This document shows positions 52,108 through 59,850 of a DNA stretch of 64,000 nucleotides, piece after piece. A program made the translations under genes and the position numbers. How positions within the stretch are numbered: position 1 is the stretch's first letter; the number at the start of each line of letters is the position of its first letter. A model generated the notes under the pieces. The model was not told the DNA's origin, did not search any database, and was given only the letters and a program-made list of their open reading frames with translations. Source of the stretch: Bdellovibrionales bacterium Ga0074139 (GTDB taxonomy: Bacteria > Bdellovibrionota > Bdellovibrionia > Bdellovibrionales > Bdellovibrionaceae); assembly GCA_001464795.1 (NCBI GenBank), contig LNEB01000013.1, positions 186,001 to 250,000 of the forward strand, in the 5' to 3' direction.

Positions 52108-54600
52108 TTACTGATTTTGCACATAAGGCTCGAAGAATTCACGCTCTTTTCTTTTGAAAGCTTCGAATTTGACTTGGGTACCCAAAGCCTCAGCCATTCG
52201 TTTAATGGCTTCGGATTCGGTTTGTTTCAACTTCACAATACCAGCTTCAGCAAACTCAGCATCAAGTTCAGTGGCCTTGGCCTTGATGGATTCTACCAAA
52301 GCCTTTGAAATGGCTGTGACTTCGATGGTTTTTTCCTCAGGGACTCTCCAGGTTTGGAACATATAATCAGTTATATATTTAAACCACTTATCGTAAAGAA
52401 CCTCATCAGTATAAATCTCTGAAAAATTAGTCGTGTACAAAGTCGCCTCAACATAAGAATCACGGTATGTGAAATCTTTCTCTGGTTGAAACTTAGGCCG
52501 AACTTTGGCTTCTTGTGCAATCATGTTTTCTTCTGTGCCCTTGATATTTCGATTAATAATGGGTTGCACAACAAAGAAGAAGGCCAGCACCAATGACATA
52601 GCAGATGTGAAACCATAAAGAAGCCATTGAACTTTTACGCGGCTTTGATTTTCTAATGATCCCTGTGAGTTTGTATTTAACGAAAATTCAGCCACATGGG
52701 AATCAAACACTTGGGTCACAGCATGGGAAATCAACTCGGATGAATGATTTTGATCGCCACGCTTTTCAATTTTGATAATGGCTTTGGTCAATTCATTGGT
52801 GACGACAGCTCGTTGATTGTTCATGAGAGCTAAAAACTGGTGCTTTGAGTCTTCCAATTTCTTTCTTTCATGATCAATGGCTTCCTTCGTTTTTTGCTCG
52901 TAATCGCTTTTTAAGCGTTCAAAATTCATTTCAATTTGCCGTTTTTCAGCAAGAACTTTCAGTTTGTACTCTTCTAGTTTAATTTTTTCCAATTCTTCAT
53001 ATTCACTGGATTTTTTCTTGGACTCAAACCGAACTCTTTGCATTTCCTCATCAAGTGCTTTTCTATGAGCTAAGAAGTCTTCTTCAAATTTCACCTTAGC
53101 ATTCGTGATGGCTTTTGTAATTTCTTGATGTTTAACTTCAAGACCTTGAATCACTTCATTTAAGTCATTTTGCTTATTATTTAATGTTTCAAATTCTTTT
53201 CGTTTTACAGCGATGTCTTCAATTAGGCGAGTTTCTGAAGACTGTAAGCCAGTCACAGTTTGATTCAGGCTTTCATATTTTGTCTTTATATCTTTGTGCT
53301 TTTCACTGTAATCTTCTATTTCCTTTTGAATTTTTTGTAAACTTTGTCTTTGTGACTCTACTTCACTTTCTAGGTTGGACTTTTGCTTTTCTAATAAAGT
53401 GGCAAGTTCTGATTTATTTTTTTCATAGTCTTGGTTTAATGCTTGCTGTAAATCTTCATGGGCAGCTTTAAGTTCAGAATCCAGATTTTTTGCGCGCAAC
53501 TGAATGTCTTCGATTTGCTTAGCTTCATTTTCTTCGTGTTCTTTTTTCTTCTTATTGTAATCCGCTTCGATTTGAATCAACTTTTCATTGAGCTCTGCAA
53601 TGGATTGATTTTTTTCTAAGTCAAATTGTGTTAAAAAATCCTGCCTTGTTTTTGCAAGTTCTTGCTCGAGAGCTGATTTATGTTGAGCTTCAAATAATTG
53701 ACAGTTTTTCTTGATTTCTTCTAGCTCTATGGTTTTTTCATCGAGGGACTGAAAGAGTCCTGATAGCTGAAGCTTCGCATCAGCTTCTGCTTTTTCAATA
53801 GTTTTACGGCGAAGTTCTTCAATCATTTGTTGGCCCATTTGTGTATGCTTGGCAATGATCTGATCACCGTGAACTTGAGCATCTTTTATTTTACTTTGAT
53901 AATAAGTTTCAGCCTCGTGCCTTTTGTTTTCAGCATCACGGCGTATGTTTTCAGTGGCTTGCCTTGCCGATTCTTCGGCTTCAAATATCATCTGAGAAGT
54001 TTTTCGCTTAGTATCTGAAATGATTTGCTGACCTTCCACTTGGGCTTTGGAAAGAATTTCCTCTTGCATCAAGAGGGTTTGATTTTCTGTATTTCGAGCT
54101 TTTTCACTTGCCACTTTTCCCAACTGCTCGGCTTGGGACTGTGCCATCGCTACAATTTCTTGGGCCTTGTGTTGGCTTGCTTTAATTAGACTTTGTAGTT
54201 GGTTTTTTTCATCGATTGGCAATAAACTTTCGGCAATGTAGTCCGTTTTAAAATGCTTTTCTAAGCATGCAAATTGTAAAACCACATCTGATTTTCCAAG
54301 TTTAATGTCATCACTGGGTTTGACATGAATCAGTCGTTTGGACTCAATTTTTTCACCATTAATAAATGTACCGTTTGAAGAGCCCTGATCAGAAACGTAA
54401 ACCTCACCTCGCTTGACAGAAACAAGCAGGTGAAGTCGACTGATTCCAACATCAGGAATTGAAAGCACACAGTCAGGCGCACGCCCGACACTGAAAGCTG
54501 TTCCATCTACCACTTTTTGCATCGACCCTTCGGAAGTCTTAATTGTGGCGATGGCACAGAACAAATCACCTGTGCCTTCAAATAACTTCAGTACACCCAT
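52108..54600 (-). CDS. FHA-domain long coiled-coil membrane protein
   Basis: 830 aa from the ATG at 54600 (a TTG one codon earlier is the alternative). N-terminal FHA phosphopeptide-binding domain (about 20-100): SVGRAPDC, SRLHLLVSV, SSNGTFINGEKI. Then about 500 residues of Glu/Lys/Gln-rich coiled coil (140-640), one membrane helix at about 658-683, and a C-terminal 148-residue part on the other side of the membrane. Overlaps the ExbB-like gene's stop by one base. Inferred third subunit of an envelope complex. Confidence 0.88.
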   Translation of the reverse strand: MGVLKLFEGTGDLFCAIATIKTSEGSMQKVVDGTAFSVGRAPDCVLSIPDVGISRLHLLVSVKRGEVYVSDQGSSNGTFINGEKIESKRLIHVKPSDDIKLGKSDVVLQFACLEKHFKTDYIAESLLPIDEKNQLQSLIKASQHKAQEIVAMAQSQAEQLGKVASEKARNTENQTLLMQEEILSKAQVEGQQIISDTKRKTSQMIFEAEESARQATENIRRDAENKRHEAETYYQSKIKDAQVHGDQIIAKHTQMGQQMIEELRRKTIEKAEADAKLQLSGLFQSLDEKTIELEEIKKNCQLFEAQHKSALEQELAKTRQDFLTQFDLEKNQSIAELNEKLIQIEADYNKKKKEHEENEAKQIEDIQLRAKNLDSELKAAHEDLQQALNQDYEKNKSELATLLEKQKSNLESEVESQRQSLQKIQKEIEDYSEKHKDIKTKYESLNQTVTGLQSSETRLIEDIAVKRKEFETLNNKQNDLNEVIQGLEVKHQEITKAITNAKVKFEEDFLAHRKALDEEMQRVRFESKKKSSEYEELEKIKLEEYKLKVLAEKRQIEMNFERLKSDYEQKTKEAIDHERKKLEDSKHQFLALMNNQRAVVTNELTKAIIKIEKRGDQNHSSELISHAVTQVFDSHVAEFSLNTNSQGSLENQSRVKVQWLLYGFTSAMSLVLAFFFVVQPIINRNIKGTEENMIAQEAKVRPKFQPEKDFTYRDSYVEATLYTTNFSEIYTDEVLYDKWFKYITDYMFQTWRVPEEKTIEVTAISKALVESIKAKATELDAEFAEAGIVKLKQTESEAIKRMAEALGTQVKFEAFKRKEREFFEPYVQNQ

Positions 54601-55535
54601 CAAGAAACCTTTTTAGACTTTACAACGTTATCAAGTTCACGACCACGGGCATTTCGTTCCACTTCTAGGCGAATGGCTTCCTCAGCCAATGCTTCACTTG
54701 GATCTTTATGCTCATCAAACTCAGAGATTTGTGCAGGATAGTTGTTACTATCAGAGCGGTACCATAATAGATCCATAGAACTTTCAAAGCGATCCACCAT
54801 AGAAACGTAGGATCTTTCAGGTGAATGAACCGTATTAAAGATATGCATCAAAAGCGAGAAGGTAATTCCAAAAATAGAAGAGTGCATGGCAAAGGCAATT
54901 TCTGCTAAGAAGCCATCCATAATTTGCTTTGTTGTCGCCATGTCAGCCATATCCATAGTTCCTAAAGCAGGAAGACCTTTTGCGATACCAATGAAGGTTC
55001 CTAAGATACCGGCCACAACAAATAGACCAGGCATAACACCTACGATGTCGTTTGTTGTCGACAATGGAAAGAATCCAAAGATTCGATTAAAACAAGGATT
55101 GTGATGAAGTGTGGCTTTTGTTATGTGCAAAAGCTTTGGAGTATCATTGGTCCACTTCAGAAACTTCAATTGTTTTAGGATGTCTTTCACAAGCCAAGCA
55201 CAGCCTTGCTTCACTAAAAACAAACGATCCGACCAGTGCATCACACGGTCATAACGACGACGTTGAAATTTTTCACGAATTTCAAAGGCTTCGTAGTAAG
55301 TCTTTTCTAAAAGTCTTTTTGTTAAGACATAAAAAGAAACATCTTTAACCTCACCCGGAGTTTGTGACTCCATGAAGTGATTGACTCTTTTTTCAAATTC
55401 ACGAGCAAACCACTCGTGCCTTTTAACGGTATAATTTATAAAATACCGAAAAAAGCAGCCAATTAAAAAGAAGGCTCCCATGATCCATGGTAGGATCGCT
55501 ACAAAAGTATCGCCTGCACCTGCTAAAAAATTCAT
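54600..55535 (-). CDS. ExbB/TolQ/MotA-like proton channel subunit
   Basis: 311 aa with three membrane segments: about 9-33, 164-187 (DIVGVMPGLFVVAGILGTFIGI, the family signature), and 210-235. The cytoplasmic loop of about 130 residues between first and second helices and the charged tail fit the ExbB/TolQ/MotA fold. Works in known systems with a single-helix partner carrying a proton-binding Asp, here the next gene upstream. Ribosome site AAGGAG 7 nt before ATG. Confidence 0.9.
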   Translation of the reverse strand: MNFLAGAGDTFVAILPWIMGAFFLIGCFFRYFINYTVKRHEWFAREFEKRVNHFMESQTPGEVKDVSFYVLTKRLLEKTYYEAFEIREKFQRRRYDRVMHWSDRLFLVKQGCAWLVKDILKQLKFLKWTNDTPKLLHITKATLHHNPCFNRIFGFFPLSTTNDIVGVMPGLFVVAGILGTFIGIAKGLPALGTMDMADMATTKQIMDGFLAEIAFAMHSSIFGITFSLLMHIFNTVHSPERSYVSMVDRFESSMDLLWYRSDSNNYPAQISEFDEHKDPSEALAEEAIRLEVERNARGRELDNVVKSKKVS

Positions 55536-55546
55536 TTTATAACTCC

Positions 55547-57289
55547 TTATTTCTTATCATCAAAACTAAATTTAATTATAACTCTTTGGGCTTTTTTACA
55601 GTCATGGGCATCACAGTAGTTTTTACTGGATGGGTTTCTGACATTCGGAAGCTTCTCTGCTAAGAAGCTTCGGCCCGTTACTTTGATCAGTGGTAGCAAA
55701 TCTTTTTGATGCTGGAAGTTGAGTCTCTCGGCATCAAAAATATGTTGGAATATGGATCTGGCTCGTTTGTAACTTAAATCCAAGTTGTAATCTACGGCAC
55801 GTCTGACTGATGGATCTAATGATTTTGGATCAATGTATTTACCTTCGAATGTGGGTGATGCAAAACCGATGATTTCAACTGAAGTAATTTTATCACGCAG
55901 TTTTCCATCAGCAAAAAGAGCTTTAGAATACTCAGGCATCGCTTTCTCTAAAACTTCTTTCATTTTTGGTTTCAACTTAGATGAGTCATTATCAAAATAA
56001 ACATCACCAAAGTTGATTACGACTTCACCTGTGCGGTCGTCGATATCTGCTTTCACACCGGCTTTAGCAAAACCATCTTTAATTCTTTTAGAAATGAGTC
56101 GTCTTGCATCAGCTTCTGCTTTCGCTCTTGCAAGGTCACCTTGAAGTTGACCAATTTGTCCCTTGGCTTGTCCCAATTGTCCTTTAGCTTGACCTAACTC
56201 ACCTTCAAGTTGTCCTAGTTTTCCTTTGGTCTGACCCAATTCTCCAGCTAACTGTCCTAGCTTTCCTTTTGTTTGTCCAAGCTCGCCTGCGAGTTGTCCC
56301 AATTGTCCTTTGGTCTGACCAAGTTCGCCTGCTAATTGACTGGCCTGTTGTTTTGTTTGTCCAAGCTCACCAGCTAACTGGTTGGCCTGCTGTTTTGTTT
56401 TAGAAAGTTCACCCAATGTTTGACCCAATTGACCTTTAGTTGCTTGAAGTTTTCCAGAAGTGGCTTGCAACTGCTCGGCTGTCATTTGTAATTCACCTTC
56501 AGTTTGAGCTAACTGACTTTTGACTTGTCCCAATTGTCCTTGAGCTGCCACCAACTCTTGCTGAAATTCTTCAGCTTGATTTTTAAGTTGTCCTAAACGC
56601 TGATCGCTTTCAGCTTTGATTTTTGCCATTTGTGCTTGGTAGGCTTTTTGAGTCATTTTGTTTTGCTGTAAAGCCTTCTTCAAATCTGCTTGTCTTTTAT
56701 TCAATGCTTTTTGAGCATCAGCAATTTTAGCTTCGTTTTCTGCTATCATGCGCTTTTTCTGATCTACGTCTTTTTCAAGAGTTGTGATTTCTTTAGTTTG
56801 TTCATCAATTTTAGAATCTTGATCTTCGATGACATTTTCACGGCGTGTAATTTTAGTTTTTGCTAAAGTGTTGGCGTTAATCATATTTCGTACGAGCTGC
56901 TGGTACTGATTCAAAGCTTTTTCTTTTGAAGCTAAATCATTAGCCTGATTTGATAATTTTTTTCTCTCATCGTTTGCTTCTTCTTGCAGCAAAGATAATT
57001 TATCCATTAACTCATTGTACTGCTGAGCCTCAGCTTCACTGGCATCTTGATTTAAATAATCTTTTTTTACACTTTCATACATAGCTAGCTGTTTTTCTAA
57101 TTCTTGAACTTTACTTGCAAGCCTCTCATTTTGTGATTGAGCATGAACTCCACTAGCACCGGTTTGTAAACTGGCAGTTACGTACAGTAATAAAAATACG
57201 ACACTCATCCCTAAGAATAAGTCAGAATAGGATGTCCAAAAGTTTCCGTCGTCAGCACCGCTCTTATGTTTGTCATAATTGAAAGACAT
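55547..57289 (-). CDS. MotB/ZorB-like stator protein with coiled coil and OmpA domain
   Basis: 580 aa. One N-terminal membrane helix (about 24-41) preceded by Asp23 (YSDLFLGMSV), the place of the proton-binding Asp in MotB/ZorB; then about 350 residues of coiled coil, including five 14-residue Gly/Gln/Leu repeats at residues 305-374; and a C-terminal OmpA-like peptidoglycan-binding domain (INFGDVYFDNDSSKL; IEIIGFASP-like segment at about 470-480). First gene of a leftward group with the ExbB-like, FHA and HIT genes. Confidence 0.9.
   Translation of the reverse strand: MSFNYDKHKSGADDGNFWTSYSDLFLGMSVVFLLLYVTASLQTGASGVHAQSQNERLASKVQELEKQLAMYESVKKDYLNQDASEAEAQQYNELMDKLSLLQEEANDERKKLSNQANDLASKEKALNQYQQLVRNMINANTLAKTKITRRENVIEDQDSKIDEQTKEITTLEKDVDQKKRMIAENEAKIADAQKALNKRQADLKKALQQNKMTQKAYQAQMAKIKAESDQRLGQLKNQAEEFQQELVAAQGQLGQVKSQLAQTEGELQMTAEQLQATSGKLQATKGQLGQTLGELSKTKQQANQLAGELGQTKQQASQLAGELGQTKGQLGQLAGELGQTKGKLGQLAGELGQTKGKLGQLEGELGQAKGQLGQAKGQIGQLQGDLARAKAEADARRLISKRIKDGFAKAGVKADIDDRTGEVVINFGDVYFDNDSSKLKPKMKEVLEKAMPEYSKALFADGKLRDKITSVEIIGFASPTFEGKYIDPKSLDPSVRRAVDYNLDLSYKRARSIFQHIFDAERLNFQHQKDLLPLIKVTGRSFLAEKLPNVRNPSSKNYCDAHDCKKAQRVIIKFSFDDKK
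56168..56377. repeat. Five tandem 42-bp (14-residue) coding repeats
   Basis: Residues 305-374 of the MotB/OmpA-like protein read as five units of LAGELGQTKxxxxQ (variants: QQAS, GQLG, GKLG, GKLG; last unit LEGELGQAKGQLGQ). The 14-residue period is two heptads, so it extends the coiled coil. Tandem repeats of this sort can change number by slippage or recombination. Confidence 0.85.
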
Positions 57290-58992: not shown

Positions 58993-59850
58993 CTAGGCTA
59001 GCTTAATGATCTTTTCTTGGACTTCGATGATGATCAGACTTTGATCACGTTCAATTTCTGCATCATTTAAAAAGTTTTTTTGTTGATAAAGAATTTCATT
59101 ACGAACCTCATGAATGGATTTGTTAGCTGAAGATCGCCATGCGTCGATCATTCGCTCGGGACCCCATGGTTCACCGCGCAGGTTTTGTGATGCAACAAGG
59201 CTGGGGGAACTTAAAAGCAGCCTATCCTGGGGCTCCAGCGACAAACTACTAGTGGTAAATTGAGACTTAAAACCAAGACTTAACTCTGGGACAATGGGAT
59301 TCAAAAAGTCTAGACTGGTACGGTTGGCTGTCTGCCGGTAAGCCGATATTAATCCTGAGGAACTGTAATCAAGTTTTAAAGTTTTCCTATCTACAGTGGC
59401 ATAAAAAAAACTGGCTTTGTCTTTTTCTTTGAAGCTAGGCAAAAGTTCATCAGCCATCGTTTGCAAAAACTCATGGGGCTTCATTCCCTTTTTGGCTTCT
59501 ATTTGGGTCGAGTATTTAATTAAAAGTCCCATCAAAGCAGAGGAAACCGTGTAGCCAGAACAGCTGGATAGAAAAATACCAAATTTCCACTTGTCATCAT
59601 GTTCGAAAATATCAAAGTAATCACCACCGAACTTAGATCCAGGAATAAACTTTGAGCTGAATTCAAAACCCTTAATTCGTGGCAATTCCGTAGGCACTAA
59701 TTTTTTTTGTAATTTAATGGCCCAATCCAAGTCTGAGGAAATTTCAGAGGCCAGCTGCAAAAGCTTATCATTAGCTTGCCTAAGAAGTTTTTCATAACCC
59801 ATGACCTGACTTTCAAGTTCAGAAATTCTTTTAAGTAATTCAGCTGACAT
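58993..59850 (-). CDS. SpoIIE-type PP2C phosphatase homologue, degenerate active site
   Basis: 285 aa: coiled coil (about 5-40), then an SpoIIE-like PP2C domain. The first metal motif GGDYFD (75-80) is intact, but the second (DxSGHG) reads SSCSGYT (Ser96 at the Asp place) and the C-terminal TDG reads SPS (Pro216 at the Asp place). Catalytic loss is therefore predicted. Such domains commonly set anti-sigma antagonist switches. Lies between the membrane protein gene and gltA. Confidence 0.85.
   Translation of the reverse strand: MSAELLKRISELESQVMGYEKLLRQANDKLLQLASEISSDLDWAIKLQKKLVPTELPRIKGFEFSSKFIPGSKFGGDYFDIFEHDDKWKFGIFLSSCSGYTVSSALMGLLIKYSTQIEAKKGMKPHEFLQTMADELLPSFKEKDKASFFYATVDRKTLKLDYSSSGLISAYRQTANRTSLDFLNPIVPELSLGFKSQFTTSSLSLEPQDRLLLSSPSLVASQNLRGEPWGPERMIDAWRSSANKSIHEVRNEILYQQKNFLNDAEIERDQSLIIIEVQEKIIKLA

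What the first reader, a model, noticed from the sequence alone, without database searches (positions are those of the whole stretch)
52108..57289. Three-gene envelope motor candidate: MotB/OmpA-like, ExbB/MotA-like and FHA/coiled-coil proteins in one operon
Seen: an ExbB/MotA-like channel subunit (TM2 signature GLFVVAGILGTFIGI), a partner with Asp23 just before its single membrane helix and a C-terminal OmpA domain, and a third protein with an N-terminal FHA domain, about 500 residues of coiled coil, one membrane helix and a 148-residue C-terminal domain. Known: ExbB/TolQ/MotA with ExbD/TolR/MotB, and ZorA-ZorB of the Zorya system, use the proton-motive force. Inference: this is a proton-driven machine in which the FHA protein senses a phosphorylated partner and bridges cytoplasm and periplasm. 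I know of no named system with exactly this set.
Basis: partly seen in the sequence, partly recalled or inferred. Interest (0 to 1): 0.78.

Follow-up and report, generated by a model that had tools for sequence, protein, structure and literature searches.

The report
Three-gene envelope motor in predatory bacteria
A fixed three-gene unit in Bdellovibrio-type bacteria encodes an apparently undescribed ion-driven cell-envelope motor, related to the motor half of the Zorya anti-phage system, plus a long rod protein that runs from the cytoplasm through the inner membrane to the periplasm; what it is for is unknown.

Summary
Three abutting minus-strand genes encode a ZorB-like channel partner (Asp23, long periplasmic coiled coil, peptidoglycan-binding-type domain), a three-helix ZorA-like channel subunit without ZorA's long tail, and an FHA–coiled-coil–membrane helix–helical-bundle protein. 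By profile and structure the nearest solved proteins are ZorA and ZorB. It is not a Zorya system: gene order is reversed, there is no ZorA tail, and no effector or other conserved neighbour. Channel subunits with the third gene form one clade, and they alone carry a C-terminal cytoplasmic motif, FDEHRDPxEALAE, a candidate docking site. Whole-unit empty sites also argue for one unit. The phospho-sensing inference is weaker: phosphothreonine-binding residues are conserved in most members but lost in a Bacteriovorax-type clade. Complex formation, ion flow and biological role are untested. I rate it a new variant of a known kind (5:2 ion-driven motors).

The parts
55547..57289 (-). ZorB/MotB-like B subunit, 580 aa, first gene
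   Evidence: ORF; PADLOC ZorB 1.7e-32; Foldseek 8vvn_A ZorB E 2e-6; 27-member alignment A3
57167..57223 (-). single TM helix (about residues 23-41) beginning with invariant Asp23, motif WTSYSDLF
   Evidence: hydropathy, alignment
56075..57166 (-). about 364-residue periplasmic helical/coiled-coil stalk; heptad-like period 3.52; AF2 helices 85-208, 214-339, 344-410 with a confident turn at 208-214 (possible hairpin)
55550..56059 (-). C-terminal ZorB/OmpA-type peptidoglycan-binding-like domain; GFASP at the position of GHTD, LSxxRA Arg kept, invariant Cys559 and Cys564
54600..55535 (-). ZorA/TolQ-like A subunit, 311 aa, three TM helices, no long tail
54681..54719 (-). cytoplasmic C-terminal motif FDEHKDPSEALAE (residues 273-285), candidate dock for the FHA protein
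   Evidence: present in members with the third gene, absent from members without
52108..54603 (-). FHA-coiled-coil-TM-helical-bundle protein, 831 aa, third gene
54277..54507 (-). FHA domain with GR, SRxH and NGTFIN motifs
   Evidence: Pfam 6e-15; motif check
52654..54231 (-). cytoplasmic coiled coil, about 525 aa, 1.9% P+G, hydrophobic period 3.67 (hendecad-like; weak in the window copy itself, clear in most homologues tested)
52576..52632 (-). membrane helix, about residues 658-676
52117..52503 (-). C-terminal (predicted periplasmic) helical bundle, conserved across the family, no solved homologue found

Best explanation
The three genes encode one ion-driven inner-membrane motor of the ZorAB class, found so far in Bdellovibrionota. 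Shown from sequence and models: the A subunit is a ZorA-like channel subunit without the fused tail; the B subunit has the channel Asp, a long helical stalk and a ZorB-type wall-binding domain; the third protein has an FHA domain and a long coiled coil, one membrane helix and a helical bundle. Inferred: A and B form a 5:2 channel around the B helices; the B domain grips peptidoglycan; ion flow past Asp23 turns A against the wall-anchored B. The FHA protein docks on the A tail (FDEHRDPxEALAE) and takes, as a separate subunit, the place of the fused ZorA tail, carrying movement or a regulatory signal between cytoplasm and periplasm. In most members the FHA domain would let a Thr-phosphorylated partner switch or anchor the rod.
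For: Profile hits only to ZorA in the PDB; ZorB is the sole significant structural match and the only sequence match. Asp23, the GTF motif and small/polar TM3 residues are invariant. Same B-A-FHA order in 36 of 40 order-level loci, the other 4 being one FHA-less genus; in 76 of 77 assessable genome-collection loci, the exception having its FHA gene elsewhere in the same genome. No other widely conserved neighbour among about 140 loci. The FDEHRDP tail is present with the FHA gene and absent without it. The trio is absent without trace at the empty site of two genomes of one genus. Distances of the A subunit, B domain and C-terminal bundle correlate at 0.82-0.86. Precedent: GltG, an FHA bitopic protein, is reported to interact with the AglR motor subunit (PMC3169522).
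Against: No complex prediction or experiment. The tail-FHA association maps to a single branch of the A tree (support 97), so it is one evolutionary event, not many. Orphan FHA-TM-bundle paralogues without a motor nearby exist, so the protein can exist without this pair. FHA-less B-A pairs also persist. The FHA phosphothreonine motifs are lost in a Bacteriovorax-type clade. Correlated distances may only reflect shared descent.
Confidence: 0.55

Rival explanations
1. It is a divergent anti-phage (Zorya-like) defence system in which the FHA protein replaces tail and effector: the motor senses wall perturbation by phage and triggers a response through the FHA protein.
For: Closest relatives are ZorA/ZorB; patchy presence, clean empty sites and a gene tree that places members of other families inside the window's family fit a mobile accessory unit.
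Against: No effector-like or other conserved neighbour; scores far below Zorya cut-offs; no ZorA tail; present in 43 of 66 genera of the order; no known effector domain in the third protein.
Confidence: 0.12
2. It is a force-generating module for surface gliding or prey attachment/invasion, working like Agl-Glt: the motor drives the periplasmic bundle of the FHA protein against outer-membrane or cell-wall partners.
For: GltG is also an FHA-cytoplasm, TM, periplasm protein reported to bind a TolQ-like motor subunit (PMC3169522); found in records named Bdellovibrio, Pseudobdellovibrio and Bacteriovorax; absent from many genomes of genus g17, so accessory to lifestyle.
Against: The motor is of another class (ZorAB, not AglRQS/TolQR); no TonB or TPR domain, no conserved neighbours; the genome holds seven other PF01618 motor proteins that could serve gliding; no predation phenotype for these genes found in the papers searched.
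Confidence: 0.2
3. The B-A pair is the whole motor and the FHA protein is a co-transcribed scaffold or signalling protein that never touches it.
For: FHA-less pairs exist; orphan FHA-bundle paralogues lie away from motors; in one lineage the gene has moved away.
Against: Tail motif present only with the FHA gene; linkage kept in nearly all lineages; gene overlap; kept in the genome even when moved.
Confidence: 0.13

Closest known systems
Zorya ZorAB motor (types I and II; PDB 8vvn, 8vvi, 8qyd and related)
   Same: A-subunit TM2-TM3 core, B-subunit Asp at the start of its helix, ZorB-type wall-binding domain with Ser at the Asp position of GHTD, long rod in the cytoplasm
   Different: Gene order B-A (canonical pairs are A-B), A subunit lacks the fused tail, rod is a separate FHA protein with its own TM and periplasmic bundle, B has a stalk of about 360 aa, no effector genes
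Agl-Glt gliding machine (AglRQS with GltG)
   Same: PMF motor plus a bitopic FHA protein reported to bind the motor subunit
   Different: AglR/Q/S are TolQR-type; GltG ends in a TonB domain; many other Glt parts that have no counterpart at this locus
TolQR/ExbBD
   Same: Three-helix A subunit with GT motif in TM2 and a one-helix B subunit with Asp
   Different: No TolA/TonB; B ends in a ZorB/OmpA-type domain on a long stalk; A is below the Pfam MotA_ExbB cut-off
MotAB/PomAB flagellar stators
   Same: B subunit with Asp and C-terminal wall-binding domain
   Different: Three rather than four TM helices in A, no flagellar neighbours, reversed gene order
Bdellovibrio Bd0474-type FHA-TM proteins
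   Same: FHA in the cytoplasm, extracytoplasmic C-terminal domain (PMC12034629)
   Different: TPR periplasmic part, no link to a motor pair reported

Membership tests
Zorya defence system | ZorA- and ZorB-homologous motor core | tested here: met
   (homology clear, but scores below the curated NCBIfam Zorya cut-offs)
Zorya defence system | long cytoplasmic tail fused to ZorA | tested here: not met
   A subunit 311 aa, mostly about 50-90 residues after TM3 in the family
Zorya defence system | effector genes (ZorC/D, ZorE or other) next to the pair | tested here: not met
   no widely conserved neighbour besides the FHA gene; third protein has no effector domain hit
Zorya defence system | anti-phage activity | not testable with these tools
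   needs plating assays
5:2 ion-driven motor superfamily (MotAB/ExbBD/TolQR/ZorAB) | A subunit with GT motif in TM2 and conserved small/polar residues in TM3 | tested here: met
   invariant G179 T180 F181, S220, G223, S227
5:2 ion-driven motor superfamily (MotAB/ExbBD/TolQR/ZorAB) | B subunit with one TM helix and essential Asp | tested here: met
   Asp23 invariant in 27 sequences; essentiality not tested
5:2 ion-driven motor superfamily (MotAB/ExbBD/TolQR/ZorAB) | 5:2 stoichiometry and ion flow | not testable with these tools
   no multimer prediction available
Flagellar stator MotAB | four-TM A subunit with torque-generating interface | tested here: not met
   three hydrophobic helices in most members
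Tol-Pal / Ton | Pfam MotA_ExbB above cut-off with TolA/TonB partner | tested here: not met
   13.9 against 22.9 bits; no TonB/TolA hit
Agl-Glt gliding machine | TolQR-type motor with GltG ending in a TonB domain and further glt genes | tested here: not met
   GltG model matched only over residues 37-216, 31 against 650 bits; no conserved further genes

The most novel reading that the evidence does not exclude
An undescribed ion-driven envelope machine in which a ZorAB-class motor drives, or is gated by, a separable membrane-crossing FHA rod docked on the motor's cytoplasmic tail, so that protein phosphorylation inside the cell controls mechanical work on the wall or in the periplasm.
Probability: 0.4. 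Interest if true: 0.78.

Novelty: new variant of a known kind. Interest (0 to 1): 0.56.

Why it matters
It would show that the ZorAB motor class is not confined to phage defence, and that its signature cytoplasmic rod can be a separate, exchangeable subunit. That gives a natural test of what the rod does: families with a fused rod (Zorya), with a separate FHA rod, and with none (the FHA-less B-A pairs) can be compared. It also adds a candidate force machine to the envelope of predatory bacteria, with a specific docking motif and channel residue to mutate.

Tried and rejected
Defence island or effector neighbours: none conserved. Identity as Tol, Ton, Mot or Agl by Pfam/NCBIfam: all below cut-off. 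Fold of the C-terminal bundle: no sequence match in the PDB; Foldseek best E 1.6 and VIA-align Z at most 5.1, which for a helical bundle means only a common arrangement, so neither a known nor a new fold is claimed. Locus tags of the B. bacteriovorus HD100 copy: genome G004 has exactly the HD100 length (own knowledge), but two tag searches found no paper on these genes. Predation Tn-seq and AlphaFold-multimer papers: term searches of the main texts gave no mention of a gene like these; supplements could not be read. The idea that the tail-FHA covariation is many independent events was rejected by the tree: one clade. Pfam OmpA was expected for the B subunit but does not hit. Relatives outside Bdellovibrionota: the genome-contig hits with other labels look like mis-binned or mis-named MAG contigs; only the best 80 of 160 were kept and no other phylum was searched directly, so restriction to the phylum is not shown.
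Full report
Observation. The window holds three minus-strand genes in the order B (55547-57289), A (54600-55535), FHA (52108-54603), with 11 bp between B and A and a 4-bp overlap between A and FHA. Pfam finds the FHA domain (6e-15) but neither the channel family above cut-off nor an OmpA domain. The PADLOC defence library and NCBIfam find ZorA and ZorB models; the NCBIfam ones are below their curated cut-offs. Seven motor-type PF01618 proteins are encoded elsewhere in the genome, all over the cut-off, so this is an additional, divergent motor that ordinary annotation would miss.

What the subunits are. A profile of 27 A subunits hits six chains in the PDB, all of ZorAB structures. The A subunit has three hydrophobic helices in most members, invariant GTF in TM2 and invariant S/G residues in TM3. 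The B subunit has Asp23 at the start of its single helix, invariant in 27 sequences. Its predicted structure is a set of long helices followed by a compact domain; the only significant structural match is ZorB of Shewanella (8vvn_A, E 2e-6), and the only sequence match is ZorB of 8vvi. In that alignment the peptidoglycan-motif position of Asp (GHTD) is Ser in both, while the later Arg is kept. The ~364 residues between helix and domain would be about 54 nm as one straight helix (arithmetic at 0.15 nm per residue), longer than a typical periplasm. The model breaks them into helices 85-208, 214-339 and 344-410 with a confident turn near 208-214, so a folded-back stalk is possible, though a single-chain model of a coiled coil is weak evidence.

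The third protein. Members have an N-terminal FHA or FHA-derived segment (one, L145, seems to lack it), a coiled coil of about 450-1050 residues in the operon copies measured, one membrane helix, and mostly 150-200 residues after it. The coiled-coil periodicity is 3.65-3.67 in most copies tested, the hendecad value, against 3.52 in the B stalk; in the window's own copy the peak lies within the range of the shuffles. The C-terminal part folds with pLDDT about 98 into a helical bundle without a convincing PDB relative. The FHA motifs GR, SRxH and NGT are present in the window; GR and SRxH are seen in most homologues. In one clade of Bacteriovorax-type genomes the segment is still recognisable but these residues are gone (L122, L129, L131, L135, L142, L150). 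Phospho-recognition is therefore not a universal part of the mechanism.

Linkage. In the order, 85 of 141 genomes have the A subunit, with a single place in nearly all. In 40 fetched loci the order B-A-FHA is seen in 36; the four exceptions are one genus whose A subunit is only 38-39% identical. In a named genome collection the best 80 loci gave 77 that could be judged; 76 have the third gene directly downstream. The last, L126, has it on another contig of the same genome. Across 369 genomes of the phylum, the A profile matches in 179 and the C-terminal bundle in 134; the A hits without a bundle are, in the loci read, the short-tailed or far more distant A subunits. Clustering of flanking genes in about 140 loci shows the three genes in 136, 133 and 107 loci and nothing else in more than 10. 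In two genomes of genus g4 (the genus of the Bdellovibrio bacteriovorus records) the flanking genes are present with no trace of the trio between them.

The tail motif. A subunits with the FHA gene carry a cytoplasmic C-terminal segment like F(D/E)xxRDPxEALAE; those without the gene lack it. A strict pattern missed 17 variants, which were then read by eye and all show a recognisable form. The tree shows why this must be read with care: the 93 FHA-linked A subunits form one clade with support 97 and the label needs a single change. So the motif and the gene arose on one branch and have not been seen apart since, even where the gene moved away. That is good evidence of a shared role but not of many independent events. 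The tree also places trios from families f4 and f9 inside a clade of the window's family f1, which suggests horizontal transfer of the unit.

Mechanism. Shown: the parts, their order, their conserved residues and their likely topology. From established knowledge: homologous pairs form 5:2 ion-driven motors; in Zorya the wall-binding domain, the ion path and the fused tail are all needed for function (PMC11890865), and an FHA bitopic protein is reported to bind the AglR motor subunit (PMC3169522). Inferred: this trio is such a motor with its rod as a separate FHA subunit docked on the A tail. What it moves or signals, the ion used and the biological role are open.

Limits. No multimer model, no expression or phenotype data and no supplementary tables could be read. 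Relatives outside the phylum were not searched directly. No paper on these genes was found in the open-licence library, which is not proof that none exists.

Noticed in passing
A-subunit C-terminus, window about 54603-54617: The extreme C-terminus of the A subunit ends in a small-residue pair, typically KAS or KAA, in 130 of 135 family members against 72 of 804 other ORFs, including FHA-less clades. It may be a degron or docking signal.
   Followed up: partly
L199-L206: Orphan FHA-coiled-coil-TM-bundle paralogues without a motor pair nearby; in genus g53 they sit beside heptosyltransferase-like, patatin-like and polyphosphate-kinase-like genes (gene names from sequence reading only).
   Followed up: partly
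L212, L213 and L152-L178: A widespread, more divergent FHA-less pair in family f12, also in B-A order, with B subunits up to about 1000 aa where the full gene was seen.
   Followed up: partly
58993-59850: A SpoIIE/PP2C-type phosphatase lies two genes upstream of the trio, beyond citrate synthase, in the window and in L057; the genome also has two clear Hanks-type kinases, one about 26 kb outside the window.
   Followed up: no
B subunit residues 559 and 564, window about 55598-55615: Two invariant cysteines near the C-terminus of the B subunit, possibly a periplasmic disulphide.
   Followed up: no
L210 (G226): A B-subunit gene with only a 114-aa remnant of the C-terminal bundle next to it and no A subunit found: the unit may be decaying here.
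   Followed up: no
genus g17 (G044-G057): Most genomes of this Pseudobdellovibrio-like genus lack the whole unit while a few have it; whether this follows epibiotic against invasive predation was not tested.
   Followed up: no
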